IMG/VR virus record: IMGVR_UViG_3300031839_000295
Span: 1-21,638 of that record
Source: a virus
Reading direction: 5' to 3' (one strand)
Length of the DNA stretch: 21,638 bases
Shown piece after piece: positions 2-18,931 of this stretch. How positions within the stretch are numbered: the stretch's first letter is position 1; the number at the start of each line of letters is the position of its first letter. The notes under the pieces are model-generated. The model saw nothing but the letters and a program-made list of their open reading frames with translations. It searched no databases and was not told the DNA's origin. The position numbers and the translations under genes were made by a program.

Positions 2-1306
2 GAGCCATATTCTGTTGTTTGGGCTGCAAGAACAGACGGAGTATTATCTGGTTTAACTTATAATAGATTAGAGAATGTCGTAGCCTGGCACAGACACGTT
101 ATCGGAGGTAAATCAGACACAACTAAAAATATTATACAACAACAAATTTCTTTTACATCTAATTCAACAATAGTTAGTACAACTAACAATACTATAACTT
201 TAACATCACACGGATTATCAACTGGCGATCCAGTTTATTATTATGCAGCTAGTAATATTATTGGTGGATTAGATAACTCTACACTTTATTACACAATAGC
301 ATCTGACAGTAACACTATTAAACTAGCAACCACAGCAGCTAACGCAACTGCGGGAACTGCTATCTCATTAACTTCAGCTCCTAGTTCAGATACCACGCAA
401 TATATTTATCAAGGTGTAAACATTTCATCTAATTTTATTTATTCAGAAGCTCATGGTTTTACTACTGGCGATATATTTTATTATGATAACACGGGTACAT
501 CTATCGGTGGATTATCTGAAAATGTAAAATATTATATTGAAAAAATAGATAACAACCAATTAAAACTTTATTCTAATAAAACTTTAACAACTGTTGTTGA
601 TATAACTTCAGCTCATACATCAGAACAAACTGATAATATTTTAACTCATTCTAAAGTAGAAAGTGTTGCAGTAATTGATGGCGATGAAGATGAAGATCAA
701 GTTTGGTTAATAGTGCAGCGTTGGATTAACGGAGCTGTAAGACGTTATGTAGAATATTTTACACCATTTGATTTTAACGAAGATTTAACTGCGTTTCATT
801 ACCTAGATAGTGGATTAAGTTATGTGGGTGGAGACACTACAAGTTTAACTGGTTTAGATCATTTAGAAGGCGAAGTAGTAGATATTATTGGCGAAGGCTC
901 AACGCAAACTTCTAAAACAGTATCAAGCGGAGCTATAACATTAGCAACTGCAACTGAACAAGCTAAAGTTGGTTTATTATATTCATCTGATTTACAAACA
1001 ATGAGATTAGATGAAGGTTATACAGAAACTACACAAACTAAAACAACTCGTATTTATGATCTATCTGTTAGATTTCAAAATACAGTTGGAGCTAGTGTGG
1101 GGCCAAATGCAGCAACATTAACTGCAATAGATTTTAGAGCTAGCGGCTCTGCAATGAACTTGCCTATTCCATTATTTACGGGAGATAAATCCGTTGAGTT
1201 TGATACGGGTTACGGCACAGAAGGGTTGGTTTACATTCAACAACCACAAGCATTACCTATGACAATACTAGGAATATATCCAAGATTGGAGACAGAAAGT
1301 GTCTAA
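2..1306 (+). CDS. Tail nozzle / tail tubular protein B-like (T7 gp12-like), 5'-truncated
   Basis: The gene is open from the left edge (frame of base 2), so its N-terminal part lies outside the window; 434 codons are visible. The flanking parts look like the C-terminal half of the T7 gp12-type nozzle family. Seen: a VVWAARTDG...GLTYNR...AWHRHVIGG block just after the edge, then ESVAVIDGDEDEDQVWLIVQRWINGAVRRYVEYF from about base 656, and a C-terminal part ending PMTILGIYPRLETESV. In T7 this protein forms the distal tail tube to which fibres attach. The order is unusual because about 180 residues (110-652) separate the two conserved blocks. An internal ATG does not start the gene, since the conserved reading frame is open well upstream. 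The stop overlaps the next start by 8 bases. Family assignment rests on recognised sequence pattern plus position before gp13/14-like genes. Confidence 0.8.
   Translation, partial: EPYSVVWAARTDGVLSGLTYNRLENVVAWHRHVIGGKSDTTKNIIQQQISFTSNSTIVSTTNNTITLTSHGLSTGDPVYYYAASNIIGGLDNSTLYYTIASDSNTIKLATTAANATAGTAISLTSAPSSDTTQYIYQGVNISSNFIYSEAHGFTTGDIFYYDNTGTSIGGLSENVKYYIEKIDNNQLKLYSNKTLTTVVDITSAHTSEQTDNILTHSKVESVAVIDGDEDEDQVWLIVQRWINGAVRRYVEYFTPFDFNEDLTAFHYLDSGLSYVGGDTTSLTGLDHLEGEVVDIIGEGSTQTSKTVSSGAITLATATEQAKVGLLYSSDLQTMRLDEGYTETTQTKTTRIYDLSVRFQNTVGASVGPNAATLTAIDFRASGSAMNLPIPLFTGDKSVEFDTGYGTEGLVYIQQPQALPMTILGIYPRLETESV
110..652 (+). repeat. Two tandem divergent domains inserted in the nozzle protein
   Basis: Two related segments of about 80-90 residues sit in frame between the conserved AWHRHVIGG and KVESVAVIDG blocks. 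The first (about 149-417) contains SHGLSTGDPVYYY, IIGGLDNSTLYYTI and DSNTIKLATT. The second (about 418-652) contains EAHGFTTGDIFYYD, SIGGLSENVKYYIE and DNNQLKLYSN. Shared pattern: HG(L/F)xTGDxxYY, then (I)IGGL, then YYxI, then (T/Q)(I/L)KL. The segments are polar, Thr/Asn/Ser-rich and probably beta-rich. I recognise this repeat style from large marine surface and phage tail proteins but cannot name a fold. Confidence 0.7.
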
Positions 1307-1751
1307 AGTTGATATTATTCCATTTGAAAACGAACACGCAAAATTTATTTTGGAGCAACCATTAAATTCTAAATTTTTAGAATTAAGAAACGAGCATAAA
1401 AAATACGCTTATTTTTTAAAAGAAATTGGAATGTCGTTTACGGGTATTGTTAACAATAAACCCATTGCGGCTGGCGGAGTGTTACCACTCTGGGATGGCG
1501 TAGCCGAAGGGTGGGTGTTGGCTACAAAAGAAATAAATAACTATCCAATAACATTTGCAAGAGTTATGAAGCAAAGAACTGACATGATGATTGCAAATAA
1601 TAAAATTAAAAGATTACAAACAAGTGTTAAAGCTGATTGCAATTTAGCTATTCGTTTTGCTAAATGGCTTGGTTTAAAAGAAGAAGGTTTAATGAAAAAT
1701 TATGGAGCTGATGGTTCAGATTATTACAGATATGCAAGGATTATAAAATGA
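1299..1751 (+). CDS. GNAT-fold acetyltransferase-like, T7 gp13-type internal protein
   Basis: This 150-residue protein has the C-terminal pattern of small phage GNAT-like proteins: a central GVLPLWDGVAEGWVLAT strand region, a basic helix with KQRTDMM, then SVKADCNLAIRFAKWLGLKEEG and YGADGSDYYRYARI, which match the end of the GNAT fold. In T7-like phages a protein of this type sits at the gp13 position, just before gp14, and is linked to virion assembly; whether it acetylates anything is unknown. The start is GTG at 1299, inside the stop of the nozzle gene, with GGAG seven bases upstream. The stop overlaps the next gene as ATGA. Function as an enzyme is not shown; an acetyl-CoA-binding loop is not obvious to me. 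Confidence 0.72.
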   Translation: MSKVDIIPFENEHAKFILEQPLNSKFLELRNEHKKYAYFLKEIGMSFTGIVNNKPIAAGGVLPLWDGVAEGWVLATKEINNYPITFARVMKQRTDMMIANNKIKRLQTSVKADCNLAIRFAKWLGLKEEGLMKNYGADGSDYYRYARIIK

Positions 1752-2203
1752 GTTTTTTTGGAGATTTATTTGCGGGTAGAGCTGCACAAAAAGCAGCAAA
1801 CTATAATGCTAGACTTGCAGAAAATAATAAAAAAATTAAAGACATGGAAGCAAAACAGATTATGTCTGTTCATAATGATTTTAATCTTCCAAAATTTGAC
1901 AAAACAGTTGAAGAAATACAAGGCACAACAAGAGTTTCATATTTAACAAGTGGAGCTGCATTAGAAGGTACTCCAATAACTGCTCTTTATGCAAACGCAT
2001 TAGAGTTAGAAACTGATAGAGATATTATGCAATTCAATGCAGAAAACGCTAGAGACACAAAAATTAACGAAGGCATTATGCTGCAAGCAGAAGCAGATCT
2101 TCAAAGATGGAGAGGTAAAGTTGCGAAAAAAGCTAGTTATTATGCAGCGGGAGCAAGTTTATTATCAACTGGAACATCAATGAAAACAGCGGGGTTCATT
2201 TAA
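1748..2203 (+). CDS. Internal virion protein B-like (T7 gp14-like)
   Basis: This 151-residue protein has the look of T7-like gp14. It has a short N-terminal SFFGDLFAGRAAQKAANYNARLAE segment, a long helical middle rich in Ala, Glu and Asn (NAENARDTKINEGIMLQAEADLQRWRGKVAKK), and a small-residue hydrophobic C-terminus (ASYYAAGASLLSTGTSMKTAGF). In T7, gp14 leaves the particle on infection and makes the outer-membrane channel for DNA entry. The position directly between gp13-like and gp15-like genes supports the call. ATG at 1748 overlaps the previous stop (ATGA), with AAGGA upstream. Similarity is by pattern and position; no catalytic motif is expected. Confidence 0.75.
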   Translation: MSFFGDLFAGRAAQKAANYNARLAENNKKIKDMEAKQIMSVHNDFNLPKFDKTVEEIQGTTRVSYLTSGAALEGTPITALYANALELETDRDIMQFNAENARDTKINEGIMLQAEADLQRWRGKVAKKASYYAAGASLLSTGTSMKTAGFI

Positions 2204-2206
2204 TTC

Positions 2207-4291
2207 ATGGCAATAAAATTATACAAATCACAATTAACACCAACAACTGAAAGTTCTAATGTTATGAATACAAATAGAGTTAGTATGGCAGAAGCTCAAT
2301 CTATTGGTAAAGCCTGGAAAGGCATGGTTAAAGCTGGAGAAGAACTTTATATAACCCACCAAGATATTAAAACTGATAATGAAATTTTAGAAAAATCTAA
2401 AGAAGTAATGAATGGTGGAGAAAATTTTACTGGATTATCTGAAACAAGTATAAGAGCATCAGAAATGAAAGATCCAGATCTTGCTGGTAAAGTATATAAC
2501 GATGAATGGCAAAAAATATTTGATAACGTCAATGGCACATTATCAAATGGAATGGCTAAAAAGAAATTTAAAGCCTTTATGACTAAACAAAATCTTAAAG
2601 ATGTTAATGCAATAAAAATTGCTTCAACAACTAATATGATTAATTCTTTAAGAACTAATAAACTAGATCAAATAGAAACTTTAAAAAAATCTGTAATTTT
2701 TGGACACCCAACAGAAAGTAAATTAGCAGCTGAAGAATTAAAAGTTTTATTAGGAGATAAAAAAACAAAAGAAATATTTGGTAATACTTTAGAAAAAGTT
2801 GCTAAAGCAACTAATAATGAAATAGCTTTTTATGGTTATAAAAGAATGCCATATACACAAAAAGATGAAGTATTAGCAGCAGCCAAAAAAGATAAAAGAA
2901 TTACAGCTGACGATTATTTAAAATTAGAAAAACATTTTAATACAACACAAACAACAGATAATAATTTAAACAAAGATAACGTATCTAAAATGGATAGTAA
3001 TTTACAAGCTGGTATTATATTTAGTGAAGATGAATTTAATGCAGCAATAGCAATTGCCACACAAAACCAAGACGAAAAAACTTTAATTAAATTAAGACAA
3101 ATGGCTACTGATGCGCCAATTATTCAAGATCTTAATACTAAAACTGTTGCTCAAATAGAAAAAAAAATTAATTTTTTTACATCTTTTAAAAATAGAGAAG
3201 GTGGTATGACAATAGCTGAAGCTAATGAGTTAAGAATATCACAAGAATATTTAGCATCGCTTACTACCTCATTAGATAAAGATCTAGTTACAACCGCAGC
3301 TGATAAAGGTGTTATTTCAATATCTGAAATTAATTTTGAAGATATATTAAATGGTGGCGATATGACTGCGTTTATTGATGGTGCAACAAATAGAATTGCA
3401 CAAGCAGAAACTGCTGCAAGTGTTTATAAAAGAGAAGTAAAATATTTAACAGCAACAGAAGCAAACACTATTAAAAATGTATTTAATAGTGCAGATACAC
3501 CAGAACAATTTATAGCTTTATCAAGTGGTATAGTTAAAGCGTTTGGTGTTAAATCAGATAAAGTATTTAAACAAATTTCTAAAGACGAAAATGTTTTAGC
3601 TCATCTTGGCGGATTAGTTTTAATGAATGATGGTGTTCCTGGAGAAAATGTAAAACTAGCAGCGGAAGGTTTAATAATTTCTAAAAACGAAAATTTAGCA
3701 AAATTATATAAAATGTCTACAACAGATATAAGAAGCACAAATATAATTAAAAAATATTCTGAAGTGTTTGTTGGTAGTGAAGCAACATTAGATAGTACAA
3801 TAGAAATGACTAACTTAATTTATGCTGCTATACTAAAAAAAGAAGGCAAAACTACTGCTAACTTTTCTAATAATTCTTATGAAAAAGCATTTGTTATGGC
3901 AGCTGGCGGTACAACAGTTGATGGTTTTCCTTTTGATAAAAAAATGGGTGGGTTTGATGAAAACACTAGAGGCACAATGGTTCATATTCCACCTTGGTTA
4001 CAAAGAGGTAAGTTTGAAAATGTAATTGAAATGTTAAAAACAGATCCACAATTAGTTTTAAAAGCATCATCAAATGGTAAATTAGCAGTAGCAATGGATG
4101 GAGAAGAAGTAAATATATTTACTAATGAAGATCCATATTTTGTAAGTGTTGGTAATGGTAAATATAAAATTGCTAATGGCGATAATCCAGTAACGGGCCA
4201 AAACCCAGAATACTTACTTAATAGTGATGGTGGATATTTTATTATTGATATTAATAAAATTAAAGCAGAAATAATTACGGGTATGCAATAA
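2207..4291 (+). CDS. Internal virion protein C-like (T7 gp15-like)
   Basis: This 694-residue, mostly helical, Lys/Glu/Asn-rich protein has no recognisable enzyme motif. It starts MAIKLYKSQLTPTTE, a style common at the start of marine T7-like gp15 proteins, and its size is close to T7 gp15 (747 residues). It lies three bases after the gp14-like gene and overlaps the gp16-like start by one base (TAATG at 4289-4293). In T7, gp15 assembles with gp16 into the periplasmic ejection tube. The C-terminal part (from about residue 560) contains GGTTVDGFPFDKKMGGF and PPWLQRGKFENVIEML and looks more globular. The assignment rests mainly on order and size, because these proteins diverge strongly. Confidence 0.65.
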   Translation: MAIKLYKSQLTPTTESSNVMNTNRVSMAEAQSIGKAWKGMVKAGEELYITHQDIKTDNEILEKSKEVMNGGENFTGLSETSIRASEMKDPDLAGKVYNDEWQKIFDNVNGTLSNGMAKKKFKAFMTKQNLKDVNAIKIASTTNMINSLRTNKLDQIETLKKSVIFGHPTESKLAAEELKVLLGDKKTKEIFGNTLEKVAKATNNEIAFYGYKRMPYTQKDEVLAAAKKDKRITADDYLKLEKHFNTTQTTDNNLNKDNVSKMDSNLQAGIIFSEDEFNAAIAIATQNQDEKTLIKLRQMATDAPIIQDLNTKTVAQIEKKINFFTSFKNREGGMTIAEANELRISQEYLASLTTSLDKDLVTTAADKGVISISEINFEDILNGGDMTAFIDGATNRIAQAETAASVYKREVKYLTATEANTIKNVFNSADTPEQFIALSSGIVKAFGVKSDKVFKQISKDENVLAHLGGLVLMNDGVPGENVKLAAEGLIISKNENLAKLYKMSTTDIRSTNIIKKYSEVFVGSEATLDSTIEMTNLIYAAILKKEGKTTANFSNNSYEKAFVMAAGGTTVDGFPFDKKMGGFDENTRGTMVHIPPWLQRGKFENVIEMLKTDPQLVLKASSNGKLAVAMDGEEVNIFTNEDPYFVSVGNGKYKIANGDNPVTGQNPEYLLNSDGGYFIIDINKIKAEIITGMQ

Positions 4292-6789
4292 TGAGTTTTT
4301 TCTTTGAAGAAGATACAGCTATACAAGTAAAAAGCACAGAAAGTATATCTAAAGGCGAAAGAACTGATTTTATGGAAAATGCTAGTAAAGCATTTAACGC
4401 ATTCCGTAGATCAGAAATATTTACATCTGAAGGTAATAACCAGGAAGAAGAATACGTTAATATAGTAAACATATTAACTGCTGCGGGTCATTCAGATTAC
4501 ATATCTCCATTAGAAGTTAATACAGATCCATTAAGTGAAGATGGCGACATGGGCGCAGTATTTAAAACTAGAGACGAATTACAAAAAAATTTTTGGGATC
4601 AAGTTGCAGTATTACAAACTACTGATGAAAATTTAAAAAATAAATTAACAGAAGCGGGTTTAGATAATTTTGAGAATATGCAAAAAACTATTGCAACTAA
4701 AACTCAAAACGCCTGGAAAGATTATACTGAAGTAAACGAAAGAGCTACTACTGCTGGATGGTGGGGTGGCATGGGTGGTATGGCGGGAGCTGCATTTACA
4801 GATCCTATTATGCTTATGACTATACCAATATCTTTTGGTTATTCTGTACCCGCTGGTTTTAGTGCCGCTGCATTAAAAATTGGATTAATGGAAGGTATTA
4901 TAGGTGGTGTTGCAGAAACAATAATACAGTTAAAAGCACAACCATACAGAGCAGAATTAGGTTTTGAAGATGCTGGTTTTGTAACTGGTGCAAAAAATGT
5001 TGGAATGGTTACACTTGCATCAGCTACATTATCTCCATTACTATTTGGTACATTTAAAGCATTTGGTAAAGGTATCGATGTAGGTAAAAAGTTTTTACAC
5101 AAACAAACTCCAGAAGATCTACAAACTATTTTTAAAGAAATGGGAGAAATAAACCCCAAACTAAAAGATAAAGATTTAACAGAATTTGAATTACCAAAAA
5201 AAGATAGTCCGTTTGAAGATACAGCTCCAGCTAGGGTTGAGCATAACGAAAGATTAGATACAGCAGCAAGAGCTATTGAAAATGGAGAACCCGTAGATTT
5301 ACCACCAATAAGATCCACGTTAGAAACACCAACACCAACTAAAATAGAATTTAACGATATAACTGCAAGCAACCCAGCTATTAAAAATACTTATGATGGT
5401 GTTAATAGATTAAAAGTATTTACAGAAGATAAAGCTCCTATAACTGTAAAAATGTTAGAAGATATATCTAAAGATGATTTAAACAAAATTTTAAGAGCAA
5501 ATGAATTAGGTTTATATAAAAGTCGGCCAGAAGTTTTAATTGCTGCTGATATGACAAAAAATTTTACCAATAAAAAAGGTAAGATTAATTATGAAAATGC
5601 ACAATTTTTTATACGTAAAGAATTAAAAGGTACTGAAACTTTAGATGAGCTTTTACAATTAGAAAGATCTACAAGAGTTACAGAAACACCAAAGGTTGCA
5701 GAAGTAGAAACTGTATCTAAAAACTTTAATAAAGAGCCAACTAGATTAGCTGACGATCAGAATAATGTAAGAGATTTTGATGTACCTAATGAAGCAGCTT
5801 ATAGAAATCAAGCCTCAAATATTGAAAGATCTGTATTTGATGTATCTACTTCTTCTTCCATTAGAAGTGTTGCTGGAGCTGGTGCAGCTGCTAAAACATC
5901 GCCTACTGTATTATCAGATGCAACCCAAGTTTTAGCTAAAGGTTCCCAAAAAACAGAAGCTACTCCAGTATCAGTTTTAGCTAATGCTAATACAGTTCCA
6001 CCACTATTTCGTGGTTTAGATACAAGTAGGGTAGGTTCTAAAAGTGCCATAACTAATAAAACAATATATCATATATCAGATGATTTCAATACGATTTATA
6101 AAACACTATCTGGAAAAAAAAATGAAGTTTTAAAAGAATTACAACCAATAGCTAATAAATATAATGGCGATTTAAAGGCAAGAATAAAAGCTATTAAAGA
6201 AATTAATAAAAAATTAAAACATACAACAAACCCTAAAAAACCAGAGCATATATCAGATTATTTAGGAACTAGAATATCTGTAAAAACTATTCACGAAGCT
6301 AAAATGCTTTTAAATGATTTAAACAAAGTTGTTAAATTTTTAGATGTAGATGATTTTTTAAATGATGCGGGTAGAGTAGTTGAAAGTAATACTGAATATA
6401 GAGCTATTCATGCACAAGTATTAACTAAAGATGGCTTTTCATTTGAGTTACAAATTAGATTGAAAGAGCTAGAGCCATTAACAAATAAATCTCACGAAAG
6501 TTACAAAAAAGCATTTTCTAAAAAAGAAATGACAAATGAAGAATTTAATATATTACAAAAAGAATTACGATCAGTTAATAAAAAATTAAAAGCTAAATAT
6601 TTTCAAATAAAAGATAAAGAATTTGCAAGATTAAAAAGTGAAGATCCATTAGATACGCCAATACCAGTTAGTCAAAGATTAGATGATGTTACTGGAGAAA
6701 GAATACCACTAACTATAACTGCTAGAGAAGCTATTGAACAAGCAGCTAAAGATGAAACAATGTTAAACAGATTGAAAGATTGCGTATGA
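4291..6789 (+). CDS. gp16-like ejection protein with C-terminal RelA/SpoT-type domain
   Basis: This 832-residue protein begins with a helical region (1-150), followed by a small-residue hydrophobic region (about 153-260, including GGMGGMAGAAFTDPIMLM and TLASATLSPLLFGTF) typical of large phage ejection proteins that contact membranes. Residues about 290-590 are a polar Thr/Ser/Ala-rich linker. Residues about 595-755 match a RelA/SpoT synthetase fold: an RxK G-loop (R631, K633; the usual Ser is Glu637), K641, D656 in DYLGTR, EYRAIH (Y703, H707) and FELQIR (E719, R723). These fall at family spacings for the nucleotide- and magnesium-binding residues. A charged helical tail follows. No T7-style lytic transglycosylase motif is seen. 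Position after gp15-like predicts packaging in the core and ejection. The stop overlaps the next start as ATGA. Confidence 0.72.
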   Translation: MSFFFEEDTAIQVKSTESISKGERTDFMENASKAFNAFRRSEIFTSEGNNQEEEYVNIVNILTAAGHSDYISPLEVNTDPLSEDGDMGAVFKTRDELQKNFWDQVAVLQTTDENLKNKLTEAGLDNFENMQKTIATKTQNAWKDYTEVNERATTAGWWGGMGGMAGAAFTDPIMLMTIPISFGYSVPAGFSAAALKIGLMEGIIGGVAETIIQLKAQPYRAELGFEDAGFVTGAKNVGMVTLASATLSPLLFGTFKAFGKGIDVGKKFLHKQTPEDLQTIFKEMGEINPKLKDKDLTEFELPKKDSPFEDTAPARVEHNERLDTAARAIENGEPVDLPPIRSTLETPTPTKIEFNDITASNPAIKNTYDGVNRLKVFTEDKAPITVKMLEDISKDDLNKILRANELGLYKSRPEVLIAADMTKNFTNKKGKINYENAQFFIRKELKGTETLDELLQLERSTRVTETPKVAEVETVSKNFNKEPTRLADDQNNVRDFDVPNEAAYRNQASNIERSVFDVSTSSSIRSVAGAGAAAKTSPTVLSDATQVLAKGSQKTEATPVSVLANANTVPPLFRGLDTSRVGSKSAITNKTIYHISDDFNTIYKTLSGKKNEVLKELQPIANKYNGDLKARIKAIKEINKKLKHTTNPKKPEHISDYLGTRISVKTIHEAKMLLNDLNKVVKFLDVDDFLNDAGRVVESNTEYRAIHAQVLTKDGFSFELQIRLKELEPLTNKSHESYKKAFSKKEMTNEEFNILQKELRSVNKKLKAKYFQIKDKEFARLKSEDPLDTPIPVSQRLDDVTGERIPLTITAREAIEQAAKDETMLNRLKDCV

Positions 6790-9326
6790 GCCAGTTTAGA
6801 AAATGTATTATTAATGGTGCTAAAGAAGGTTTGATAAGTCAAACACAAGCTCACAAACTGCAAGATATGTTAAATGAGTTAGAGGATTACTTTCAATTTA
6901 AAAAAGGTTTAGATAGATCGGAAGCTCAAAGAGCTGCTGCTAAAAAAACCTACGATCAATTAAAAATAGAAAGTGCAGAAAAATTAAGAGCTACATTACT
7001 ACAAAGAAAAGTAATGGATCAAATCCAGGAAAGATTATTAAATTATAGAAATAGTAAAGGCGAAGTAGATGTACCTAATGCAGTTAGATCTATGTATGCA
7101 CACGATAATTATTCAACTGAATTTAGTATTGAAAGATTAGTTGATATGGAAAGAGGTAAAGCTCACGCATTAATGAATAATGTTTTAGATCAGCTAGCTT
7201 ATAAAATAGGTGGCAGACAAACTAAATTACAAAAAACTAATCTTAAATTAATGATTAGAGAATTAATGGGAGAAAATACTGGTAATAAAAATGCTAAACA
7301 ATTAGCTGAAGCCTGGAAACAAACTGCTGAACATTTAAGAAAAAGATACAATAGTTTTGGTGGCAAAATTTTATCAAGAAAAGATTGGGGATTACCACAA
7401 ATACATGACACATTATTAGTTAGATCTGTAACTAAATCAGATTGGATTGATTATGTTTTACCTAAACTAGATCTTGATAAAATGACAGATGAAAGCACGG
7501 GTTTACCATTTACAGATAAAAGTATTCAAAAAGCATTAAATCAAGTTTACGATAATATTTCAACAGAAGGTATGGCAACTTTTAAACCTGGCACAAATTC
7601 TTATGGTAAAACATTTGCTAATAGAAGAACCGATCACAGATTTTTAGCTTTTAAAAATGCAGATGCCTGGATGGAATATCAAACAAGATTTGGTAATCCA
7701 GATCCATTTGTAACTATGATGGAACATATTAACGGAATGAGTAGAGATATAGCTTTATTAAAAACATTGGGGCCAAATCCAGATGCAACACACTCATTTT
7801 TATTACAAACTATAAAGAAACAATCAATATTAGATACAGCCGCAGAAGCACAAGGTAAATTTAAAAGAAAAACTATTAAAAAAATTTCTGGTAGTGAACA
7901 AGATAGAGCAAGTGCAATAACTGAAAGTATTAATAATTTATATGCCTATCACAAAGGTACTTTAAATCAGCCAGTTAATGCTACTATGGGAAATACATTT
8001 GCTGGTTTAAGACAAATACTAACTTCTGCACAATTAGGAGGAGCAAGTATTATGGCTCTTTCAGATTTTAACTGGTCAAGGATAACATCTAAATTTAATG
8101 GTTTACCATCTTTTAAAGCTAACAAAATGGCTACAAAATTATTATACGATGGTATAAAAAAAGATAGTTCATTAAGTAGAGTTGCTATGCGATTAGGATT
8201 AATTGCTGAAATGCAATCAACAGTAGCTGGAGTTCAAGCAAGATATTTAGATGACATAGATACACCAATGTTAGCTAAAAGAGTTTCAGATGTAATTTTA
8301 AGAGGTTCTGGATTATCTCATTTAACACAATCTGGTAAATGGGGTTTTGGTATGTCTTTACTAGGAACGCTAGGAGACGAAAGCGGTAAAGTTTTTAATA
8401 AATTAAACCCAGATTTACAAAAAGCATTAAATAAATATGGTATAGATGATGAGGCTTGGGATATTATTAGAGCTACTAAATTATATGATGCGGGTATTGA
8501 TGAACCTTCTATGGTTGGTAAAAATATAACTTTTTTAAGACCCGATGATATTCATGCAAGAGCAGATCTAGCTCCAGATATTAGAGAAGATTTAACAACA
8601 AGGTTAATGAATTTTGTTACTTCTGAAACTAACTTTGCTGTACCTACTGCATCTGCAAAAGGTAGAACTATTTTAGCGGGAAGTACAAAAAAAGGTACTG
8701 TACCTGGAGAGCTTATGTCATCAGCTTTAATGTATAAAAACTTTGCAATTACATTAGGCTTTACTCATTTAGCTAGAGGGTTTCAGCAAGTAGGTTTAAA
8801 AGGTAAAGCAAAGTATTTAGTACCAATGATTATAACGGGTGGTGTTATGGGTGCTTTAGCTTATGAATTAAAACAAATAGCAGCTGGTAAAAAACCTACT
8901 GAACTAAAAGATATGGGAGTTAGATATTGGTTAAATTCATTAGTGTATGGTGGTGGATTAGGAATTTTTGGAGATTTTTTATTTGCAGATCAAAACAGAT
9001 ATGGTGGATCTTTGCAGAAAACTATTGCTGGGCCAGTCGTAGGTTTCTTACATGATGCAATACAATTAACTATTGGTAATGTTATGCAGCTAGCTTCTGG
9101 GGAAAAAACTAATGCGGGTAAAGAATTAGCGGCATTTATACAAAGATACACTCCTGGTTCAACACTTTGGTATACCAGGTTAGTATTCGAAAGATTAATT
9201 ATAGATACACTTGAAAGGTTAATTAACCCAGATTTTGATGCAGATAATAGAAGAAAAGAAAGAAACTTAAAAAAACGTACTGGACAAACGTATTGGTGGT
9301 CTCCAGGCGAAATTACACCAAATTAA
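6786..9326 (+). CDS. Large internal virion / DNA-ejection protein (gp16-like second part)
   Basis: This 846-residue protein is of the type found as the last large ejection protein in many podoviruses. The N-terminal 230 residues are helical and charged. Its middle holds ANRRTDHRFLAFKNADAWMEYQTRFG, a recurring pattern in these proteins. There are hydrophobic segments near residues 678-695 (LVPMIITGGVMGALAYEL) and 714-733 (YWLNSLVYGGGLGIFGDF). It ends YWWSPGE, a signature ending of this group. A TTG two codons upstream is in frame, but ATG at 6786 gives the ATGA overlap used by its neighbours, so I chose ATG. Together with the preceding gene it may do the job of T7 gp16, split over two polypeptides. 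No enzymatic motif was recognised. Confidence 0.7.
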   Translation: MSQFRKCIINGAKEGLISQTQAHKLQDMLNELEDYFQFKKGLDRSEAQRAAAKKTYDQLKIESAEKLRATLLQRKVMDQIQERLLNYRNSKGEVDVPNAVRSMYAHDNYSTEFSIERLVDMERGKAHALMNNVLDQLAYKIGGRQTKLQKTNLKLMIRELMGENTGNKNAKQLAEAWKQTAEHLRKRYNSFGGKILSRKDWGLPQIHDTLLVRSVTKSDWIDYVLPKLDLDKMTDESTGLPFTDKSIQKALNQVYDNISTEGMATFKPGTNSYGKTFANRRTDHRFLAFKNADAWMEYQTRFGNPDPFVTMMEHINGMSRDIALLKTLGPNPDATHSFLLQTIKKQSILDTAAEAQGKFKRKTIKKISGSEQDRASAITESINNLYAYHKGTLNQPVNATMGNTFAGLRQILTSAQLGGASIMALSDFNWSRITSKFNGLPSFKANKMATKLLYDGIKKDSSLSRVAMRLGLIAEMQSTVAGVQARYLDDIDTPMLAKRVSDVILRGSGLSHLTQSGKWGFGMSLLGTLGDESGKVFNKLNPDLQKALNKYGIDDEAWDIIRATKLYDAGIDEPSMVGKNITFLRPDDIHARADLAPDIREDLTTRLMNFVTSETNFAVPTASAKGRTILAGSTKKGTVPGELMSSALMYKNFAITLGFTHLARGFQQVGLKGKAKYLVPMIITGGVMGALAYELKQIAAGKKPTELKDMGVRYWLNSLVYGGGLGIFGDFLFADQNRYGGSLQKTIAGPVVGFLHDAIQLTIGNVMQLASGEKTNAGKELAAFIQRYTPGSTLWYTRLVFERLIIDTLERLINPDFDADNRRKERNLKKRTGQTYWWSPGEITPN

Positions 9327-9420: not shown

Positions 9421-12400
9421 ATGACAATAAGTACAACAACTATAAAAAATTCGTATAGCGGTAATGGTAGCACAACTGCGTTTGCCTACACATTTCCTAT
9501 TAATACAACATCTGAAATTACAGTAATTGAAAGATCTGCTACTGGTTCAGAAACAATAAAATCTGAAGGTACTGGATCAACAAACTATGGTATAGTTGAC
9601 AATGGAGCTTCTGGCGGAACAGTTACTATGGTTACGGCTCCAGCATCTGGCACAACTTTAGTTATTAGACGTAATACAGATCTTACACAAGAAACTGATT
9701 ATGTAGCAAACGATCCATTCCCAGCTGAAACGCATGAAGATGCTTTAGATAAAGCATTAATGCAATCACAAGAATTACAAGAACAATTAGATAGATCATT
9801 TAAAGTATCAAGAACTGCTACTATTACTACACCAGAATTTACAGAAGATGCTGCAACAAGAGCATCAAAAACTTTAGGTTTCGATAGCACGGGTAACGTA
9901 CTACAAACTGTCGCTGATTTCTTACCCGCTGGTGGAGATAGTGCAATGTTTCAATATTCAACAACAACTGCCGATGCCGATCCTGGTTCTGGAAAATTTA
10001 GATTAAACAACGCAACAATTTCTAGTGCAACTGAAATGTATATAGATGATTTAGAATTTAATGGTACAGATGTTTCAGCATGGGTACAGAGCTGGGATGA
10101 TGTTGCGGGTAACGATACTAATAGAGGAAGAATAAGAATTTCAAAAGCAAATACATTAGATACTTGGATGGTATTTAAAGTTACTGGTGCAATTACAGAT
10201 GCTACTGGTTATTCTAAAATAAGTTTAGTTTACATTGATAGTGCTGGTACTTTTGCAGATGATGATAAAGCATTTATTGCATTTGTATCATCTGGAGAAG
10301 ATGGAGCTATACCTGGCTACTTTTATAAATTCGATACTGGTACATCTGATGCTGATCCTGGAGCTGGAGAGATTGCTTTTAATCACGCAACTTATGCAAA
10401 TGTTACAGAAATATATATTGATGATGTTGATGCTAATGGTGCAGCAACTCAAACTGATACTGAAACTTGGGGATCATCAACTTCAACTATAAAAGGATTT
10501 ATTCACATTGTAGATATTAACGATAGATCTACATACGCAAGATTTAAAGTAACTGCTGCGGTAACAGACGCTTCTGGTTATAATAAAATTACAGTTGTTC
10601 ATCTTGCATCTAATAATACATTTTCAGCAGCCGATGAGCTGTCTGTTCATTTTACAAGAACAGGATTAAAAGGAGATACTGGATCACAAGGTATTCAAGG
10701 AAATACTGGAACTGCTGGTTTAGCAATGACTTTTAGTAATTCAACTTCTGATGCAGATCCAGGCGCAGGCAAAGTAGCTTTAAATAATGGAACGTTAAGT
10801 TCAGTTTCTATTTTATATGTAGATGATGCAGACGATGCTGGAACTGACATATCTGGTTTTGTTCAAAGTTGGGATGATGTATCAAACTCTGCTGCTAGAG
10901 GTATTATTCAAATAGTAAAAGAAGGAACACCAACAACTTTTGCAAATTATAAAGTAACTGGTGCTGTAACAGATGCAAGCGGATACACTAAAATTCCCGT
11001 AACTCATATAGTTTCAAATGGTTCTTTTTCAAATGCAGATGGTATTGGAGTTAATTTTATATATTCTGGTGCAGATGGTTCTGGAGATGTTTCAACAGAT
11101 GGTACACAAACATTAACTAATAAAACTCTAACATCGCCTAAAATTGGTACTTCTATTTTAGATACCAATGGTAATGAATTATTAAAACTTACTGCAACTG
11201 GTTCAGCAATTAATGAATTAACTTACGCAAATGCTGCTGCTGGCAATAATCCTACTTTTACAGCATCTGGTGGAGACACTAATATTGGTGTATCAATTTT
11301 ACCAAAAGGAAGCGGACAAGTTACAATAGATAATTTAACTTTTCCAGCAGCAGATGGTTCAGCAAATCAAATTTTAACAACTAATGGTTCTGGAGCTTTA
11401 TCTTTTGTAGATAACTCTGGTGGTACAGATTGGCAATCAGCAGTCAAAACTTCAAACTTTACAGCAGCAGCTGGAGAAGGTTATTTTGTAAATACTGCTG
11501 GTGGTGCTTTTGAAATTGATTTACCAGGTTCTCCTAGTGTAGGAGATGAAATTGAATTTGTTGATTTTACAAGAAATTTTGCAACAGCTAATCTTACATT
11601 AGATCAAGGGTCTTTAAAATTTCAAGGTTTTGCATCTCCAAAACCCGTTTATAGTACAGATGGTCAAAATATAAAAATAGTTTATTCTGGTTCAACGCAA
11701 GGTTGGATCCCATTAGTAGATGACGATGTAACTAATGAAACTCCACAAACATATTCAGTAGATTTTTTAGTAGTTGCTGGAGGAGGCGGTGGTGGACAAG
11801 ATGACGGAGGAGGCGGAGGTGCTGGTGGATACAGAACTTCTACTCAAGCAAGTCAGTCTGCTGGAAATACTATAACTGTTACAGTAGGAGATGGTGGAGC
11901 TAATCGGACAGATGGTAGTGATTCATCAGTTTCTGGTACTGGTATAACAACAATTACATCTACTGGTGGTGGTAAAGGTGGAGATGGTGGGCCAAATACT
12001 GCTGCAACAGGTGGGTCTGGTGGTGGTGGTGGAAATACTAATTCAAATCCAGGAGCTTCTGGAAACACTCCAAGTACTTCTCCAAGTCAAGGTAATGATG
12101 GTGCTGCTGGTCAAGCCTCTGCACCAAGAAACGGTGGCGGTGGCGGTGGTGCTGGAGAAGATGGAAATACAGATGGTGCTGCTCATGGTGGAGATGGATT
12201 ATCTTCTTCAATAACTGGTTCAGCAGTTACAAGAGCTGGTGGCGGTGGTGGTTCAACAAGAGTTGATGGAAACGCACGACCAGGCGGAGATGGTGGTGGA
12301 GGTAATGGTGGTTGTGATACCCCACAAGTTACAGCTACAGCTGGAACTGCAAATACTGGTGGTGGAGGCGGAGGAGGTGCTGGAAATACTCCTCAACAAG

Positions 12401-12546
12401 GTGGTGCTGGTGGAAAAGGTGTGGTTATTGTTAGTATGCCAGACGCAAATTACTCTGGAACAACATCTGGATCTCCAACAGTTGCTACAGGAGTTTCTGG
12501 AAAAACAGTTTTAACATTTACAGGAAGTGGGAGTTACGTATCATAA
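9421..12546 (+). CDS. Tail fibre protein with T7 gp17-like N-terminus and glycine-rich tip
   Basis: This 1041-residue protein is modular. Residues 1-125 resemble the T7 gp17 N-terminal attachment domain (NSYSGNGSTTAFAYTFP..., ending in helical EDALDKALMQSQELQEQLDRS). Residues about 180-548 hold three tandem repeats of about 125-133 residues, with a collagen-like G-x-y run (GLKGDTGSQGIQGNTGTAG) between copies 2 and 3. A TLTNKTLTSPKI segment common in marine fibres follows near residue 560. A beta-rich stem leads to DFLVVAGGGGGG, and residues about 785-1004 are extremely glycine-rich, ending GGKGVVIVSMP, then a short beta tail. It should bind the host surface. Its start has no strong ribosome-binding site (AAAG 9 bases upstream), and TAATG couples it to the next gene. 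Confidence 0.88.
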   Translation: MTISTTTIKNSYSGNGSTTAFAYTFPINTTSEITVIERSATGSETIKSEGTGSTNYGIVDNGASGGTVTMVTAPASGTTLVIRRNTDLTQETDYVANDPFPAETHEDALDKALMQSQELQEQLDRSFKVSRTATITTPEFTEDAATRASKTLGFDSTGNVLQTVADFLPAGGDSAMFQYSTTTADADPGSGKFRLNNATISSATEMYIDDLEFNGTDVSAWVQSWDDVAGNDTNRGRIRISKANTLDTWMVFKVTGAITDATGYSKISLVYIDSAGTFADDDKAFIAFVSSGEDGAIPGYFYKFDTGTSDADPGAGEIAFNHATYANVTEIYIDDVDANGAATQTDTETWGSSTSTIKGFIHIVDINDRSTYARFKVTAAVTDASGYNKITVVHLASNNTFSAADELSVHFTRTGLKGDTGSQGIQGNTGTAGLAMTFSNSTSDADPGAGKVALNNGTLSSVSILYVDDADDAGTDISGFVQSWDDVSNSAARGIIQIVKEGTPTTFANYKVTGAVTDASGYTKIPVTHIVSNGSFSNADGIGVNFIYSGADGSGDVSTDGTQTLTNKTLTSPKIGTSILDTNGNELLKLTATGSAINELTYANAAAGNNPTFTASGGDTNIGVSILPKGSGQVTIDNLTFPAADGSANQILTTNGSGALSFVDNSGGTDWQSAVKTSNFTAAAGEGYFVNTAGGAFEIDLPGSPSVGDEIEFVDFTRNFATANLTLDQGSLKFQGFASPKPVYSTDGQNIKIVYSGSTQGWIPLVDDDVTNETPQTYSVDFLVVAGGGGGGQDDGGGGGAGGYRTSTQASQSAGNTITVTVGDGGANRTDGSDSSVSGTGITTITSTGGGKGGDGGPNTAATGGSGGGGGNTNSNPGASGNTPSTSPSQGNDGAAGQASAPRNGGGGGGAGEDGNTDGAAHGGDGLSSSITGSAVTRAGGGGGSTRVDGNARPGGDGGGGNGGCDTPQVTATAGTANTGGGGGGGAGNTPQQGGAGGKGVVIVSMPDANYSGTTSGSPTVATGVSGKTVLTFTGSGSYVS
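9961..11090 (+). repeat. Three tandem ~125-133-residue repeats in the tail fibre
   Basis: Copies begin near 9967, 10348 and 10747, each with (S/A)DADPG(A/S)G(K/E)xxxN followed by (M/I/L)Y(I/V)DD, a WDDV or equivalent, a RG-I-I segment, a V(T/A)G-ATDA-GY-K segment and a V-(I/L)-S-FxxxD segment. The DNA has diverged more than the protein, so these are old, selected domain duplications and not recent slippage. Confidence 0.85.
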
Positions 12547-12935
12547 TGGCTAGTTTTGCAAAAATAGGATTAAATAATAAAGTGATTGAAGTTCAATCAG
12601 TAGTTAATGAAGTTTTACATGATAGTAATGGTGTAGAACAAGAAAGCATTGGAATTGATTTTTTAAATAAATTAACTAGTTGGTCTATTTGGAAACAAAC
12701 ATCTTATAATACTCATGGTGGAGTTCACGATAATGGTGGCACACCATTTAGAAAAAATCATGCTGGTATAGGTTACACTTATGATGAAGATAGAGATGCT
12801 TTTATACCACCTAAACCTTATACATCTTGGACACTTAATGAAGAAACTTGTTTATGGGAAGCACCTAGCGAAAAACCCAATGATGGCAATTCTTATATAT
12901 GGAATGAAGAAAATCAAACTTGGGATCAAATATAA
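12546..12935 (+). CDS. Conserved small marine-phage protein, Trp-rich, function unknown
   Basis: This 129-residue protein starts MASFAKIGLNNKVIEV and contains FRKNHAGIGYTYDEDRDAFIPPKPYTSW and repeated W-containing turns (TCLWEAP, SYIWNEE, QTWDQI). I recognise this pattern from hypothetical proteins near tail genes of marine myoviruses and podoviruses, where it is abundant. The role is unknown; the position directly after the fibre, coupled to it by TAATG, suggests a tail-associated or fibre-assembly protein. No signal peptide or membrane segment is seen. Confidence 0.75.
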   Translation: MASFAKIGLNNKVIEVQSVVNEVLHDSNGVEQESIGIDFLNKLTSWSIWKQTSYNTHGGVHDNGGTPFRKNHAGIGYTYDEDRDAFIPPKPYTSWTLNEETCLWEAPSEKPNDGNSYIWNEENQTWDQI

Positions 12936-12938
12936 TAA

Positions 12939-12956
12939 ATACTAAATTTTTAGTAT
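12939..12956 (+). promoter_or_regulatory. Perfect palindrome covering the oxygenase start codon
   Basis: ATACTAAA (12939-12946), TT, TTTAGTAT (12949-12956) is an 18-base perfect inverted repeat. The A and T of the ATG at 12955 lie inside its right arm, and no Shine-Dalgarno is visible upstream. In RNA the hairpin would bury the start codon; as DNA it could be an operator. AT-rich context makes chance possible. Confidence 0.35.
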
Positions 12957-13539
12957 GAAAAAAACAAAAATTAATAATCCATCTTGGAATTTGTATTTAG
13001 ATAAAGTTTATACTTATGCCTATATGGAAAAAGTATTTACTAAAGAAGAATGTAAATTAATAATTAATTCTGCAAAAAAAAAAGGTTTAGTTAAAGGAAT
13101 TACAACAGGCAAAACTGATGCCAGATTAAGTAAAATTTGTTGGTTATATAGTGATGAAAATTTAGAATGGGTATTTAGAAAAATTACAGATGTTGTTTTA
13201 AATCTTAATAGTAGGTTTTTTAATTTTGATATTTTTGGTTTAAATGAGGGTTTACAATTTACAAATTACAAAGCACCATCAGATAATTATAGAAAGCATA
13301 TTGATAGATCATTAGATATTGTAGTAAGAAAATTATCTTTATCAATTCAACTTACTGATCCCAAAGAATATGAGGGTGGAGAACTAATTTTATACGAAGA
13401 TGAAAAAGGCACACCAATGAAAAAAGAACAAGGTACATTAGTATTATTTCCATCTTATATGTTACATGAAGTTAAGCCTGTAACAAAAGGAGAAAGAAAT
13501 TCATTAGTTTCTTGGGTAACAGGAAAACAATTTAAGTAA
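12955..13539 (+). CDS. 2-oxoglutarate/Fe(II)-dependent oxygenase (prolyl-hydroxylase type)
   Basis: This 194-residue protein has the full metal and cosubstrate set of the double-stranded beta-helix 2OG-Fe(II) oxygenases: H115-I-D117, distal H171 (YMLHEV), and R181 ten residues later (ERNSLVSW) for the 2-oxoglutarate carboxylate. Other family marks are VFTKEEC near residue 28, EGGEL (140-144) and the GTLVLFPS strand (160-167). The layout resembles the short PiuC/P4H-type enzymes carried by marine phages. Substrate unknown; hydroxylation of a virion or host protein, or a role in nucleic-acid modification, is possible. It is separated from the previous gene by a palindrome and has no clear ribosome-binding site. 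Confidence 0.85.
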   Translation: MKKTKINNPSWNLYLDKVYTYAYMEKVFTKEECKLIINSAKKKGLVKGITTGKTDARLSKICWLYSDENLEWVFRKITDVVLNLNSRFFNFDIFGLNEGLQFTNYKAPSDNYRKHIDRSLDIVVRKLSLSIQLTDPKEYEGGELILYEDEKGTPMKKEQGTLVLFPSYMLHEVKPVTKGERNSLVSWVTGKQFK

Positions 13540-18103: not shown

Positions 18104-18180
18104 TGGTCTGGGTGGCTGGATTTGAACCAGCGATCCCTAGCTCCCAAAGCTAGTGCGTTACCAGGCTACGCTACACCCAG
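18104..18180 (-). tRNA. tRNA-Pro(UGG), with encoded CCA; possible attP core
   Basis: Read on the - strand, 77 bases form a complete cloverleaf: acceptor CTGGGTG (18180-18174) with CACCCAG, discriminator A, encoded CCA (18106-18104), D-arm GCG...CGC, anticodon stem CTAGC/GCTAG with loop TTTGGGA giving anticodon UGG and G37, and T stem GCTGG/CCAGC with loop TTCAAAT. It reads CCA, a very common proline codon in the phage genes here. It stands on the side of the regulator/integrase block away from the early genes and is antisense to read-through from the + strand block. It could be a phage tRNA, an attachment-site copy, or both; no host gene flanks it. Confidence 0.93.
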
Positions 18181-18502: not shown

Positions 18503-18928
18503 TTATAAATTATATATTTTTATTGGTTCTTTATCTGCTACTGGATCTTTAAATGTATTCTCGCCAGCTAGCTCTCGGTTTAATTTAGGCATTAGAGGCG
18601 CATAGAGACGTTGTAGCCTACGTTCTTCAATAATGTTAGCTTCTATCTCACGAAACTTTTTAGCTACCATATCTTGCTTAAATAAAGGTATTTGTTGCAG
18701 CACCATTTCTGGATCTCCATTGTATAATAAATTTATATCCCAGCCTTCTTGTTTAGCTAAAACAAATAACTTATCAGAACCAATGCCATTCAAGGCTTTT
18801 TCATATTTCTGTATCTGCTGAAACGAAACCTTTACTGCTTTAGATATTTTTGTTTGAGTTTTACCGCTTATGGTTCTTAAAACGAACATCATTTTTGCTA
18901 TTCGTTCCTTCTCTTGTAGTGCTGGCAT
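18503..18928 (-). CDS. XRE-family transcriptional regulator (CI/Cro-like)
   Basis: This 141-residue protein has an XRE helix-turn-helix at about residues 13-67: MFVLRTISGKTQTKISKAVKVSFQQIQKYEKALNGIGSDKLFVLAK. The FQQIQKYEKALNGIG...L form is typical of alphaproteobacterial regulators. No C-terminal LexA-type protease domain is present, so it may be a short repressor, a Cro-like protein, or an excisionase-type controller. ATG at 18928 lies three bases past the integrase stop, and its ribosome-binding site AAGGA is inside the end of the integrase gene, so the two are co-expressed. Likely operators are the palindromes at 21101 or in the noncoding region at 18181-18473. Confidence 0.88.
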   Translation of the reverse strand: MPALQEKERIAKMMFVLRTISGKTQTKISKAVKVSFQQIQKYEKALNGIGSDKLFVLAKQEGWDINLLYNGDPEMVLQQIPLFKQDMVAKKFREIEANIIEERRLQRLYAPLMPKLNRELAGENTFKDPVADKEPIKIYNL

Positions 18929-18931
18929 CTA

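What the first reader, a model, noticed from the sequence alone, without database searches (positions are those of the whole stretch)
6070..6560. RelA/SpoT-type nucleotidyltransferase fused to a phage ejection protein
Residues about 595-755 of the gp16-like protein show the synthetase signature at family spacings: R631-x-K633, K641, D656 (DYLGTR), Y703 and H707 (EYRAIH), E719 (FELQIR). In Rel enzymes the equivalent residues bind ATP, magnesium and the guanine base. The G-loop Ser is Glu here. T7-type ejection proteins travel into the cell ahead of the DNA, so the domain may act in the host at once, making alarmones, pyrophosphorylating nucleotides or tRNA like toxSAS enzymes, or blocking host (p)ppGpp signalling. 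RelA/SpoT domains are known in phage polyvalent proteins, but I know of none described on the gp16-type core protein of marine T7-like phages.
Basis: partly seen in the sequence, partly recalled or inferred. Interest (0 to 1): 0.9.

Follow-up and report, generated by a model that had tools for sequence, protein, structure and literature searches.

The report
Alarmone-synthetase payload on phage ejection protein
A short-tailed ocean virus of bacteria carries a stress-signal-type enzyme fused to a protein it probably injects with its DNA, and related viruses carry other toxin-like enzymes, or none, at the same spot, as if it were an exchangeable warhead.

Summary
The 832-aa protein at 4291-6789 contains a RelA/SpoT synthetase domain (Pfam E 1.1e-9, above cut-off). 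Its predicted fold matches small alarmone synthetases (RelP, Z 16.7). Nine donor- and acceptor-site residues are invariant in 19 sequences. The gene sits in the gp14-gp17 ejection cassette of an epsilon15/HTVC010P-type podovirus, probably of SAR11; no T7 RNA polymerase was found, so it is not T7-like.

The new result: this C-terminal part of gp16 is an exchangeable payload slot. Of 76 gp16 ORFs chosen by their neighbour gp17 (best 80 of 400 loci), 30 carry this domain and 20 a Zeta-toxin-type kinase. Ten carry a divergent RelA/SpoT-like domain whose profile finds Tas1, one an ART-like domain, six something unidentified, five apparently nothing; four are fragments. Between close relatives the segment has been replaced by a diverged allele while flanks stay about 90-100% identical.

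Most likely it is a virion-borne pyrophosphokinase effector acting on host nucleotides or tRNA at entry. Substrate, toxicity and presence in virions are untested. RelA/SpoT, zeta-like and ART domains in injected phage "polyvalent proteins" were predicted in 2017: a new variant of a known kind.

The parts
4291..6789 (+). gp16-position protein, 832 aa, carrying the RelA/SpoT domain
   Evidence: gp15-gp16-gp17 order in the related contigs wherever the contig is long enough
4291..5307 (+). N-terminal chassis, residues 1-339, with a hydrophobic stretch at about 164-258
   Evidence: 94-95% identical to L022/L020 and about 27% to the Zeta-type gp16; hydropathy; weak phrog_342 (internal virion protein with endolysin domain) match, E 0.009 here, best 7.1e-4 of 17; structure model too poor to use (pLDDT 54)
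5308..5775 (+). variable middle slot, residues 340-495; no assigned domain in the window, ART-like or ParB-like in some relatives
6025..6597 (+). RelA/SpoT synthetase-like domain, residues 579-769 (Pfam core 631-740 = 6181-6510)
5407..6606 (+). segment replaced between lineages: 58-72% DNA identity to L022/L020 in 200-nt windows, except one window at 85%
6598..6789 (+). conserved C-terminal tail with the protein's only cysteine, C831 (6781-6783)
2207..4291 (+). gp15-position ejection-cassette protein, 694 aa, no cysteine
   Evidence: synteny; Cys count
6780..9326 (+). gp17-position virion protein, 848 aa, single N-terminal cysteine C9
   Evidence: phrog_684, E 1.5e-161; 113 phage records
1748..2203 (+). 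gp14-position internal virion protein, 151 aa
   Evidence: phrog_418, E 1.5e-4; synteny
1299..1751 (+). gp13-position, GNAT-like internal virion protein
   Evidence: phrog_4177 and phrog_308; position as in phiV10 and HTVC100P

Best explanation
The gp16-position ejection protein is a delivery chassis. Its N-terminal third is the conserved ejection part. Its C-terminal half is an exchangeable payload slot, which in this phage holds a catalytically competent RelA/SpoT-superfamily pyrophosphokinase. The proposed course is that gp16 leaves the head with gp14, gp15 and gp17 just before or with the DNA, that the part after the hydrophobic region reaches the cytoplasm, and that it transfers pyrophosphate from ATP to a host acceptor (a nucleotide, or a tRNA end as in toxSAS enzymes), slowing host translation or transcription before any phage gene is read. 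Shown here: the domain, predicted fold, active-site signature, synteny, exchange of alleles, and substitution by Zeta-type, Tas1-like or ART-like domains or by apparently nothing. Inferred: packaging, injection, topology, activity, substrate and effect.
For: Pfam PF04607 above cut-off in the window; matched in 17 of 17 proteins scanned, window included. Fold: RelP Z 16.7 over 170 residues, RelQ 16.1, Rel 12.3, CapRel 12.0, Tas1 11.4. Counterparts by spacing of FaRel2 R64, K66, K74, D90, R95, Y128, E145 and Q147 (residues from PMC11782079), plus the His of YRxIH, are invariant in 19 of 19 sequences. Position in the gp14-gp17 cassette. Payload slot: of 76 gp16 ORFs 30 RelA/SpoT, 20 Zeta-type, 10 divergent RelA/SpoT-like, 1 ART-like, 6 other, 5 none, 4 fragments. 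Zeta_toxin E 8.8e-16 and 4.6e-13 in L041, L042, 1.3e-22 and 1.1e-18 in L138, L177. The divergent group's profile has one PDB hit at E<=1, Tas1, E 8.7e-12. Allelic replacement centred on this segment. A relative, L028, in which the domain is absent. dN/dS about 0.3-0.5 in the domain against four relatives.
Against: No proteomics, assay or toxicity data. The donor-site Ser (FaRel2 S70) is Glu here and varies in the family (K 10, S 6, E 3 of 19); FaRel2 R77 has no counterpart; the Arg of QIR is Ser in 12 of 19. The best structural matches are RelP and RelQ, which the FaRel2 paper calls non-toxic; FaRel2 scores only Z 6.8. The N-terminal chassis gave no usable model, so membrane topology is argued from hydropathy only. 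Homology of this gp16 to characterised gp16 proteins is weak. Depleting host ATP or blocking tRNA could also harm the phage.
Confidence: 0.6

Rival explanations
1. It is a (p)ppGpp synthetase used for signalling rather than killing: the injected enzyme raises (p)ppGpp briefly to slow growth, shift NTP pools or bias the lysis-lysogeny choice of this integrase-bearing phage.
For: Closest folds are RelP and RelQ, aligned out to model residue 205-207, beyond the catalytic core; the YR at the acceptor Tyr resembles GYRSYH of the SAS 2be3; integrase and HTH genes at 18503-20137; 120 of 147 Pelagibacteraceae genomes have an RSH of their own, so targets of (p)ppGpp should exist.
Against: Sister gp16 proteins use Zeta-type kinase or ART-like domains at the same place, which make no alarmone. 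No residue test here separates GTP from other acceptors.
Confidence: 0.22
2. Counter-defence: the domain disarms a host or prophage defence (for example by competing with or modifying a CapRel- or RelA-type sensor, or altering a signal nucleotide).
For: Exchange of alleles and of whole domains fits an arms race; CapRel is the top Foldseek hit by E-value, 2.1e-8.
Against: No defence target was looked for or is known to me in the presumed SAR11 hosts; full catalytic signature kept.
Confidence: 0.09
3. The domain is a catalytically dead structural or nucleic-acid-binding module of the ejection machine.
For: Substituted donor Ser; ejection proteins are structural.
Against: Nine of nine catalytic positions invariant, p 3.6e-7; the chassis apparently exists without a payload (5 of 76, judged by length; L028) and with unrelated enzymes.
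Confidence: 0.05
4. It acts in the producing cell or lysogen (late-made toxin or superinfection block), its place on gp16 being incidental.
For: Position among virion genes; integrase.
Against: Fusion to the ejection chassis kept in the RelA/SpoT loci with room, though those were found through the domain; the whole protein keeps to one C-terminal cysteine, but for the 191-aa domain alone zero Cys is not significant (P 0.15).
Confidence: 0.04

Closest known systems
Phage polyvalent proteins with RelA/SpoT domains and MuF-RelA/SpoT fusions (Iyer et al. 2017, PMC5512222; passages and section 22 read)
   Same: RelA/SpoT, ART, ParB-like and zeta-toxin-like kinase domains in phage or mobile-element proteins, in phages encoded among virion genes and predicted to be injected
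   Different: [quoted passage not shown] the main text has no occurrence of gp16 or pelagi. Here the carrier is the gp16-position protein of epsilon15-type aquatic podoviruses, with one payload slot that swaps or is empty
Small alarmone synthetases RelP/RelQ
   Same: Fold (Z 16.7 and 16.1) and active-site residues
   Different: Free-standing enzymes of bacteria; here fused to a virion-cassette protein, about 16-18% identical in the structural alignments
toxSAS enzymes and the T6SS effector Tas1; CapRel
   Same: RelA/SpoT-fold effectors; CapRel top by Foldseek E-value; the divergent sister payload finds only Tas1 at E<=1
   Different: Those work in TA modules, as a self-inhibited CapRel, or through T6SS with an immunity protein; no such partner is adjacent here
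Epsilon15/phiV10 gp15-gp16-gp17 and Pelagibacter phage HTVC100P gp46-gp45-gp44
   Same: Gene order and gp17 homology
   Different: Their gp16-position proteins are 600 and 489 aa and lack RelA/SpoT
Alcaligenes phage Piluca gp16 (epsilon15 gp16-like)
   Same: gp16 position with extra domains
   Different: Carries ddrB-ParB (E 1.1e-40) and a sub-threshold SLT match instead

Membership tests
RelA/SpoT synthetase superfamily (PF04607) | Profile match above curated cut-off | tested here: met
   38.9 bits vs 27; matched in 17 of 17 proteins, window included
RelA/SpoT synthetase superfamily (PF04607) | Synthetase fold | tested here: met
   Foldseek and VIA top hits are RelP/RelQ/CapRel/Rel, Z up to 16.7, on a predicted model of pLDDT 78
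RelA/SpoT synthetase superfamily (PF04607) | Donor and acceptor residues (FaRel2 R64, K66, K74, D90, R95, Y128, E145, Q147) | tested here: met
   Counterparts by spacing present and invariant in 19 of 19
RelA/SpoT synthetase superfamily (PF04607) | Auxiliary triphosphate contacts S70 and R77 of FaRel2 (listed contacts; not treated here as family-defining) | tested here: not met
   E637 and H644 in the window; S at 637 in 6 of 19
RelA/SpoT synthetase superfamily (PF04607) | Pyrophosphate transfer from ATP | not testable with these tools
   needs an enzyme assay
toxSAS toxin-antitoxin toxins | Adjacent antitoxin or fused antitoxin domain | tested here: not met
   Neighbours are gp15 and gp17 in the contigs with room; no antitoxin-type Pfam match on the protein
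toxSAS toxin-antitoxin toxins | Toxic tRNA or (p)ppApp chemistry | not testable with these tools
   needs an assay
Phage polyvalent proteins (Iyer 2017) | Several biochemically unlike domains in one polypeptide | tested here: inconclusive
   Window protein: only RelA/SpoT assigned. Relatives add ART-PolyVal matches (5 of 17 at E<=0.1; the L027 segment 28.5 bits vs cut-off 31.2) or a DGHxR ParB-like region homologous to SI2 gp16
Phage polyvalent proteins (Iyer 2017) | Encoded among virion genes | tested here: met
Phage polyvalent proteins (Iyer 2017) | Packaged and injected | not testable with these tools
   needs virion proteomics and a delivery assay
epsilon15-type gp16 ejection protein | Position between gp15- and gp17-type genes of the cassette | tested here: met
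epsilon15-type gp16 ejection protein | Sequence homology to characterised gp16 | tested here: inconclusive
   Weak: phrog_342 E 0.009 in the window, 2 of 17 at E<=0.01, best 7.1e-4; profile vs phiV10/HTVC100P gp16 only a few bits. Shared single C-terminal Cys
T7-like phages (Autographiviridae) | Phage-encoded single-subunit RNA polymerase | tested here: inconclusive
   PF00940 absent in 6 records incl. the 32-kb contig G001 that matches the window's genes at 100%, T7 control E 9.9e-110; the uncultured contigs may be incomplete

The most novel reading that the evidence does not exclude
The gp16-position ejection protein of a large group of aquatic podoviruses is a general effector-delivery chassis: one conserved ejection part plus an interchangeable C-terminal enzyme (RelA/SpoT synthetase, Tas1-like, Zeta-type kinase, ART-like, others or none), perhaps tied by a single C-terminal cysteine to the single N-terminal cysteine of gp17, so that every infecting particle delivers a few toxin molecules into the host before its DNA is expressed.
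Probability: 0.5. Interest if true: 0.85.

Novelty: new variant of a known kind. Interest (0 to 1): 0.75.

Why it matters
If true, these ocean short-tailed phages bring a pre-made stress-signal or toxin enzyme with every particle. Takeover would then begin before transcription, in probable SAR11 hosts that have one RSH gene and very small cells. Rough arithmetic, from recalled numbers except the copy number: T7's record gives about 3 copies of gp16, and in a cytoplasm of about 0.02 fL one molecule is about 0.08 uM, so 3-10 enzymes at a few turnovers per second could reach tens to hundreds of uM within a minute. The slot also gives a natural comparison set: the same chassis with different enzymes or none. 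That makes the question of what injected phage proteins do to the host directly testable.

Tried and rejected
Single-sequence phmmer against the PDB found no synthetase; the profile did. NCBIfam gave no match for the window protein and only sub-cut-off ones for two relatives. Pfam OSK (E 6.5e-4, below cut-off), NAD_binding_5 and the other sub-threshold matches were set aside as chance. phrog_4012 (E 8.6e-5, unknown function) covers the same stretch but says nothing on function. tblastn of the whole protein against 50,697 phage records: no match at E<=0.01; of the domain: best E 0.1, not used, although Paenibacillus phage proteins annotated GTP pyrophosphokinase appear at E 2. The N-terminal chassis model has pLDDT 54, so no fold search was made with it; its profile found nothing credible in the PDB. 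The ParB-like label of the DGHxR region is from motif recall; Pfam gave no ParB match for L020's segment, SI2 or L055, PHROGs only families of unknown function and a portal protein, the PDB none. It rests on homology to SI2 gp16, on the weak ParB_N match in L151 (E 0.0014, below cut-off) and on ddrB-ParB in Piluca's gp16. The payloads of L145/L150, L151 and L170-L172 looked RelA-like by eye; profile comparison of L170-L172 with L151 gave probability 2.7, so they stay 'other', and L145/L150 were not compared. A recent host-RSH origin of the domain is not supported: host copies score mostly about 1e-39 to 1e-44 to PF04607, the phage type 3.7e-8; no tree was built. Comparison of cysteines in host SYNTH segments failed because my pattern matched none; only the whole-protein counts (4-6 Cys) are valid. 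A first PF00940 search had no positive control and was repeated with T7. The payload sample is the 80 loci most like the window's gp17 among 400 found, so it is biased to near relatives; Pfam was run on representatives only, and 'no payload' is judged by length.

Novelty searches (PMC open library only): polyvalent proteins+RelA+ParB, RelA+internal virion protein, toxSAS+prophage+polyvalent, pelagiphage+alarmone, ejection protein+polyvalent protein, pelagiphage+SpoT, alarmone synthetase+phage+virion+ejected, ejection proteins+cysteine+disulfide+podovirus, epsilon15+gp17+ejection+cysteine, RelA SpoT domain+phage+structural protein. No listed title or abstract start names a RelA/SpoT domain on a podoviral ejection protein; lists were capped.
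Full report
OBSERVATION. The window is one IMG/VR virus record of 21,638 bases. ORF 4291-6789 (+) encodes 832 residues. Pfam RelA_SpoT matches residues 631-740 with E 1.1e-9, above its curated cut-off.

RELATIVES. A scan of IMG/VR with the domain gave 17 loci, one of them 100% identical to the window over the domain; with the profile, 27 viral loci and one contig of a Candidatus Pelagibacter MAG were found. Of 17 full-length proteins aligned (window and 16 relatives), 17 match PF04607. In the MAG contig (9.6 kb) I found phage genes gp14 to tail fibre and looked for nothing else, so it may be a phage contig and is weak host evidence. Better host evidence is a 962-base tail-fibre stretch 80.7% identical in DNA to Pelagibacter phage HTVC010P.

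FOLD AND ACTIVE SITE. AlphaFold2 on 18 aligned sequences gave pLDDT 78.4, pTM 0.68. Foldseek against the PDB ranks CapRel first (E 2.1e-8), then RelP, RelQ, Rel and Tas1. The VIA second look gives RelP Z 16.7 over 170 residues at 3.0 A, RelQ 16.1, Rel 12.3, CapRel 12.0, Tas1 11.4, FaRel2 6.8. The FaRel2 paper (PMC11782079, passages read) lists the contacts R64, K66, S70, K74, R77, D90, R95, Y128, E145, Q147. By spacing the window has R631, K633, E637, K641, H644, D656, R661, Y703, E719, Q721. All except the counterparts of S70 and R77 are the same residue and invariant in 19 of 19 sequences, as is H707. Since 40 of 191 columns are invariant in all, nine of nine has p 3.6e-7; with 637 and 644 counted in, nine of eleven, p 1.4e-5. 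Position 637 is K in 10, S in 6, E in 3. dN/dS in the domain is about 0.3-0.5 against four relatives. The domain is thus very probably an active enzyme, with an unusual donor helix.

SURROUNDINGS. The genes at 2-9326 follow the epsilon15/phiV10 order gp12 to gp17 and the order of Pelagibacter phage HTVC100P. In the 28 related contigs, gp17 lies right after gp16, and gp15 before it wherever the contig reaches that far. phiV10's gp16 is 600 aa, HTVC100P's 489 aa; PF04607 is absent from those records and from SI2, ZCVPP1, HTVC010P and MT835618, and from six more phages. T7 RNA polymerase (PF00940) is absent from six records including the 32-kb contig whose genes match the window at 100%, while T7 gives E 9.9e-110. 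So this is an epsilon15/HTVC010P-type podovirus, not a T7-like one. The review of ejection proteins (PMC8954989, passages) presumes that the gp16 C-terminal part extends into the host cytoplasm in T7; by analogy, with the hydrophobic stretch at about 164-258, the RelA/SpoT domain would end up inside. That step is inference.

THE SLOT IS A RECOMBINING CASSETTE. In 200-base windows, DNA identity of the window to L022 is 84-100% over gp15 to codon ~370 of gp16 (one window of 72% in gp15) and 90-100% from 6807 through gp17, but 58-72% over 5407-6606 (one window 85%), with 86% at 6607. L020, which starts inside gp15, behaves alike. To L034 the stretch 5807-6406 is 86-88% while its immediate flanks are 68-78%; L034 also reaches 88-90% in two other windows. 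The domain has been replaced by a diverged allele between otherwise close relatives.

THE SLOT CHANGES CONTENT. L041/L042, found with the N-terminal chassis (27% identity), have gp15 and gp17 orthologues (29-30% and 46%) but a Zeta_toxin kinase (E 8.8e-16, 4.6e-13) in place of RelA/SpoT. L028, whose gp17 is 67% identical, lacks the domain: its gp16 fragment, which runs to the C-terminus, matches window residues 297-344, 465-514 and 783-832 only. To count without choosing by the domain, I searched with a gp17 profile: 400 relatives, best 80 kept. 76 have a gp16 ORF of at least 100 aa upstream, 10 of them cut at the 5' end; 4 loci have none. By motif and clustering: 30 RelA/SpoT (YRxIH), 20 Zeta-type, 10 divergent RelA/SpoT-like, 6 unidentified, 5 with no payload (772-878 aa, judged by length), 1 ART-like, 4 fragments (one of them L028's contig); at 90% dereplication 55: 23, 13, 7, 5, 4, 1, 2. 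Pfam was run on representatives only: Zeta_toxin E 1.3e-22 and 1.1e-18 in L138 and L177; ART-PolyVal and DUF3990 below cut-off in L140; RelA_SpoT 0.013, below cut-off, in L155, and none in L152. The profile of seven of the ten divergent proteins has one PDB hit at E<=1, the type VI effector Tas1, E 8.7e-12, and aligns to the window's family at 94.9% probability, with YRDIK where the window has YRAIH. The sample is ranked by closeness to the window's gp17, so fractions do not describe the whole group. The middle of gp16 varies too: ART-PolyVal matches in 5 of 17 and, in L055/L060, a DGHxR ParB-like region homologous to the gp16 of Dunaliella viridis virus SI2, a tailed-phage record (31% over about 360 aa, E 1e-44).

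CYSTEINES. In 75 of 76 of those gp16 ORFs the only cysteine lies within the last ten residues; L140 has one extra. The same holds in 12 phages of the annotated collection, four of them phiV10 and its close relatives. gp17 has a cysteine within its first 11 residues in 21 of 21 loci (L028 has two) and in 13 of 13 phages, the window included (TPWB-05 has one more later). gp15 has none in 8 of 12 examined and two in the four phiV10-like phages. Against a general rule: T7 gp16 has no cysteine, nor have four HTVC010P proteins of that region, whose assignment I did not establish. Other ORFs of the window's phage have 59 Cys in 6021 residues; gp14-gp17 without their ends would be expected to have 24.6 and have none. 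The payload obeys the rule of its carrier, which fits joint travel; for the 191-residue domain alone zero Cys is not significant (P 0.15).

MECHANISM. Best explanation: an exchangeable, virion-borne pyrophosphokinase effector (0.6). The alternatives at the same place, Zeta-type kinase, Tas1-like and ART-like domains, belong to families known as toxins or effectors (recalled; zeta, ART and RelA/SpoT so described in PMC5512222 passages, Tas1 in PMC11782079), which favours a hostile act on the host over pure signalling. But the closest fold is RelP/RelQ, so (p)ppGpp remains possible (0.22). Presumed hosts have their own RSH: 121 of 147 Pelagibacteraceae genomes match PF04607, one of them only through the phage contig.

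KNOWN. Iyer et al. 2017 predicted RelA/SpoT domains in polyvalent proteins and MuF fusions, and zeta-like kinases and ARTs too. BFVD holds large uncultured phage proteins with similar folds, some named RelA/SpoT, ART-PolyVal-like or DdrB-like. Ten literature searches listed no report of this domain on a podoviral ejection protein (see Tried and rejected). Hence: new variant of a known kind.

Noticed in passing
window 6781-6783 (gp16 C831) and 6804-6806 (gp17 C9); gp16/gp17 of the loci: gp16-position proteins have exactly one cysteine, at the extreme C-terminus (75 of 76, plus 12 annotated phages), and gp17 a cysteine at its extreme N-terminus: a tail-to-head cysteine pair that may link the two proteins. 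T7 gp16 has none.
   Followed up: partly
L003, L004, L024, L027, L013 gp16; L055, L057, L060 gp16; L020 gp16: A second variable slot in the middle of gp16 (in L013 after the RelA/SpoT domain) holds ART-PolyVal-like or DGHxR ParB-like regions; the window's own middle segment (5308-5775) has no assignment.
   Followed up: partly
L145, L150, L151, L170-L172 gp16 C-terminal parts: Unidentified payload-like domains in the same slot; vaguely RelA-like by eye, not by the profile comparison made for L170-L172 and L151.
   Followed up: partly
window 18104-18180 (-) and 18932-20137 (-): A tRNA-Pro(TGG) near a tyrosine-type integrase gene and an HTH gene, suggesting a temperate phage with a tRNA attachment site.
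   Followed up: no
window 9697-10658 and 12187-12711: Two stretches of the tail-fibre region close to Pelagibacter phages HTVC010P (80.7% DNA identity) and Greip EXVC021P (76.9%, opposite strand of that record).
   Followed up: no
window 12955-13539: 2OG-Fe(II) oxygenase gene (PF13640, E 8.1e-15) after the tail genes.
   Followed up: no
L100 1128-1283: A Zeta-type relative whose gp16 reading frame stops after 51 codons although homology to the family continues downstream.
   Followed up: no
Pelagibacteraceae genomes: One PF04607 match per matching genome, mostly in an open frame of about 583 codons, shorter than usual full-length RSH (recalled, about 700); 26 of 147 genomes show no match, completeness not told.
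   Followed up: no
L087 (Alcaligenes phage Piluca gp16): gp16 carries ddrB-ParB (E 1.1e-40) and a sub-threshold transglycosylase match, another composite gp16.
   Followed up: no
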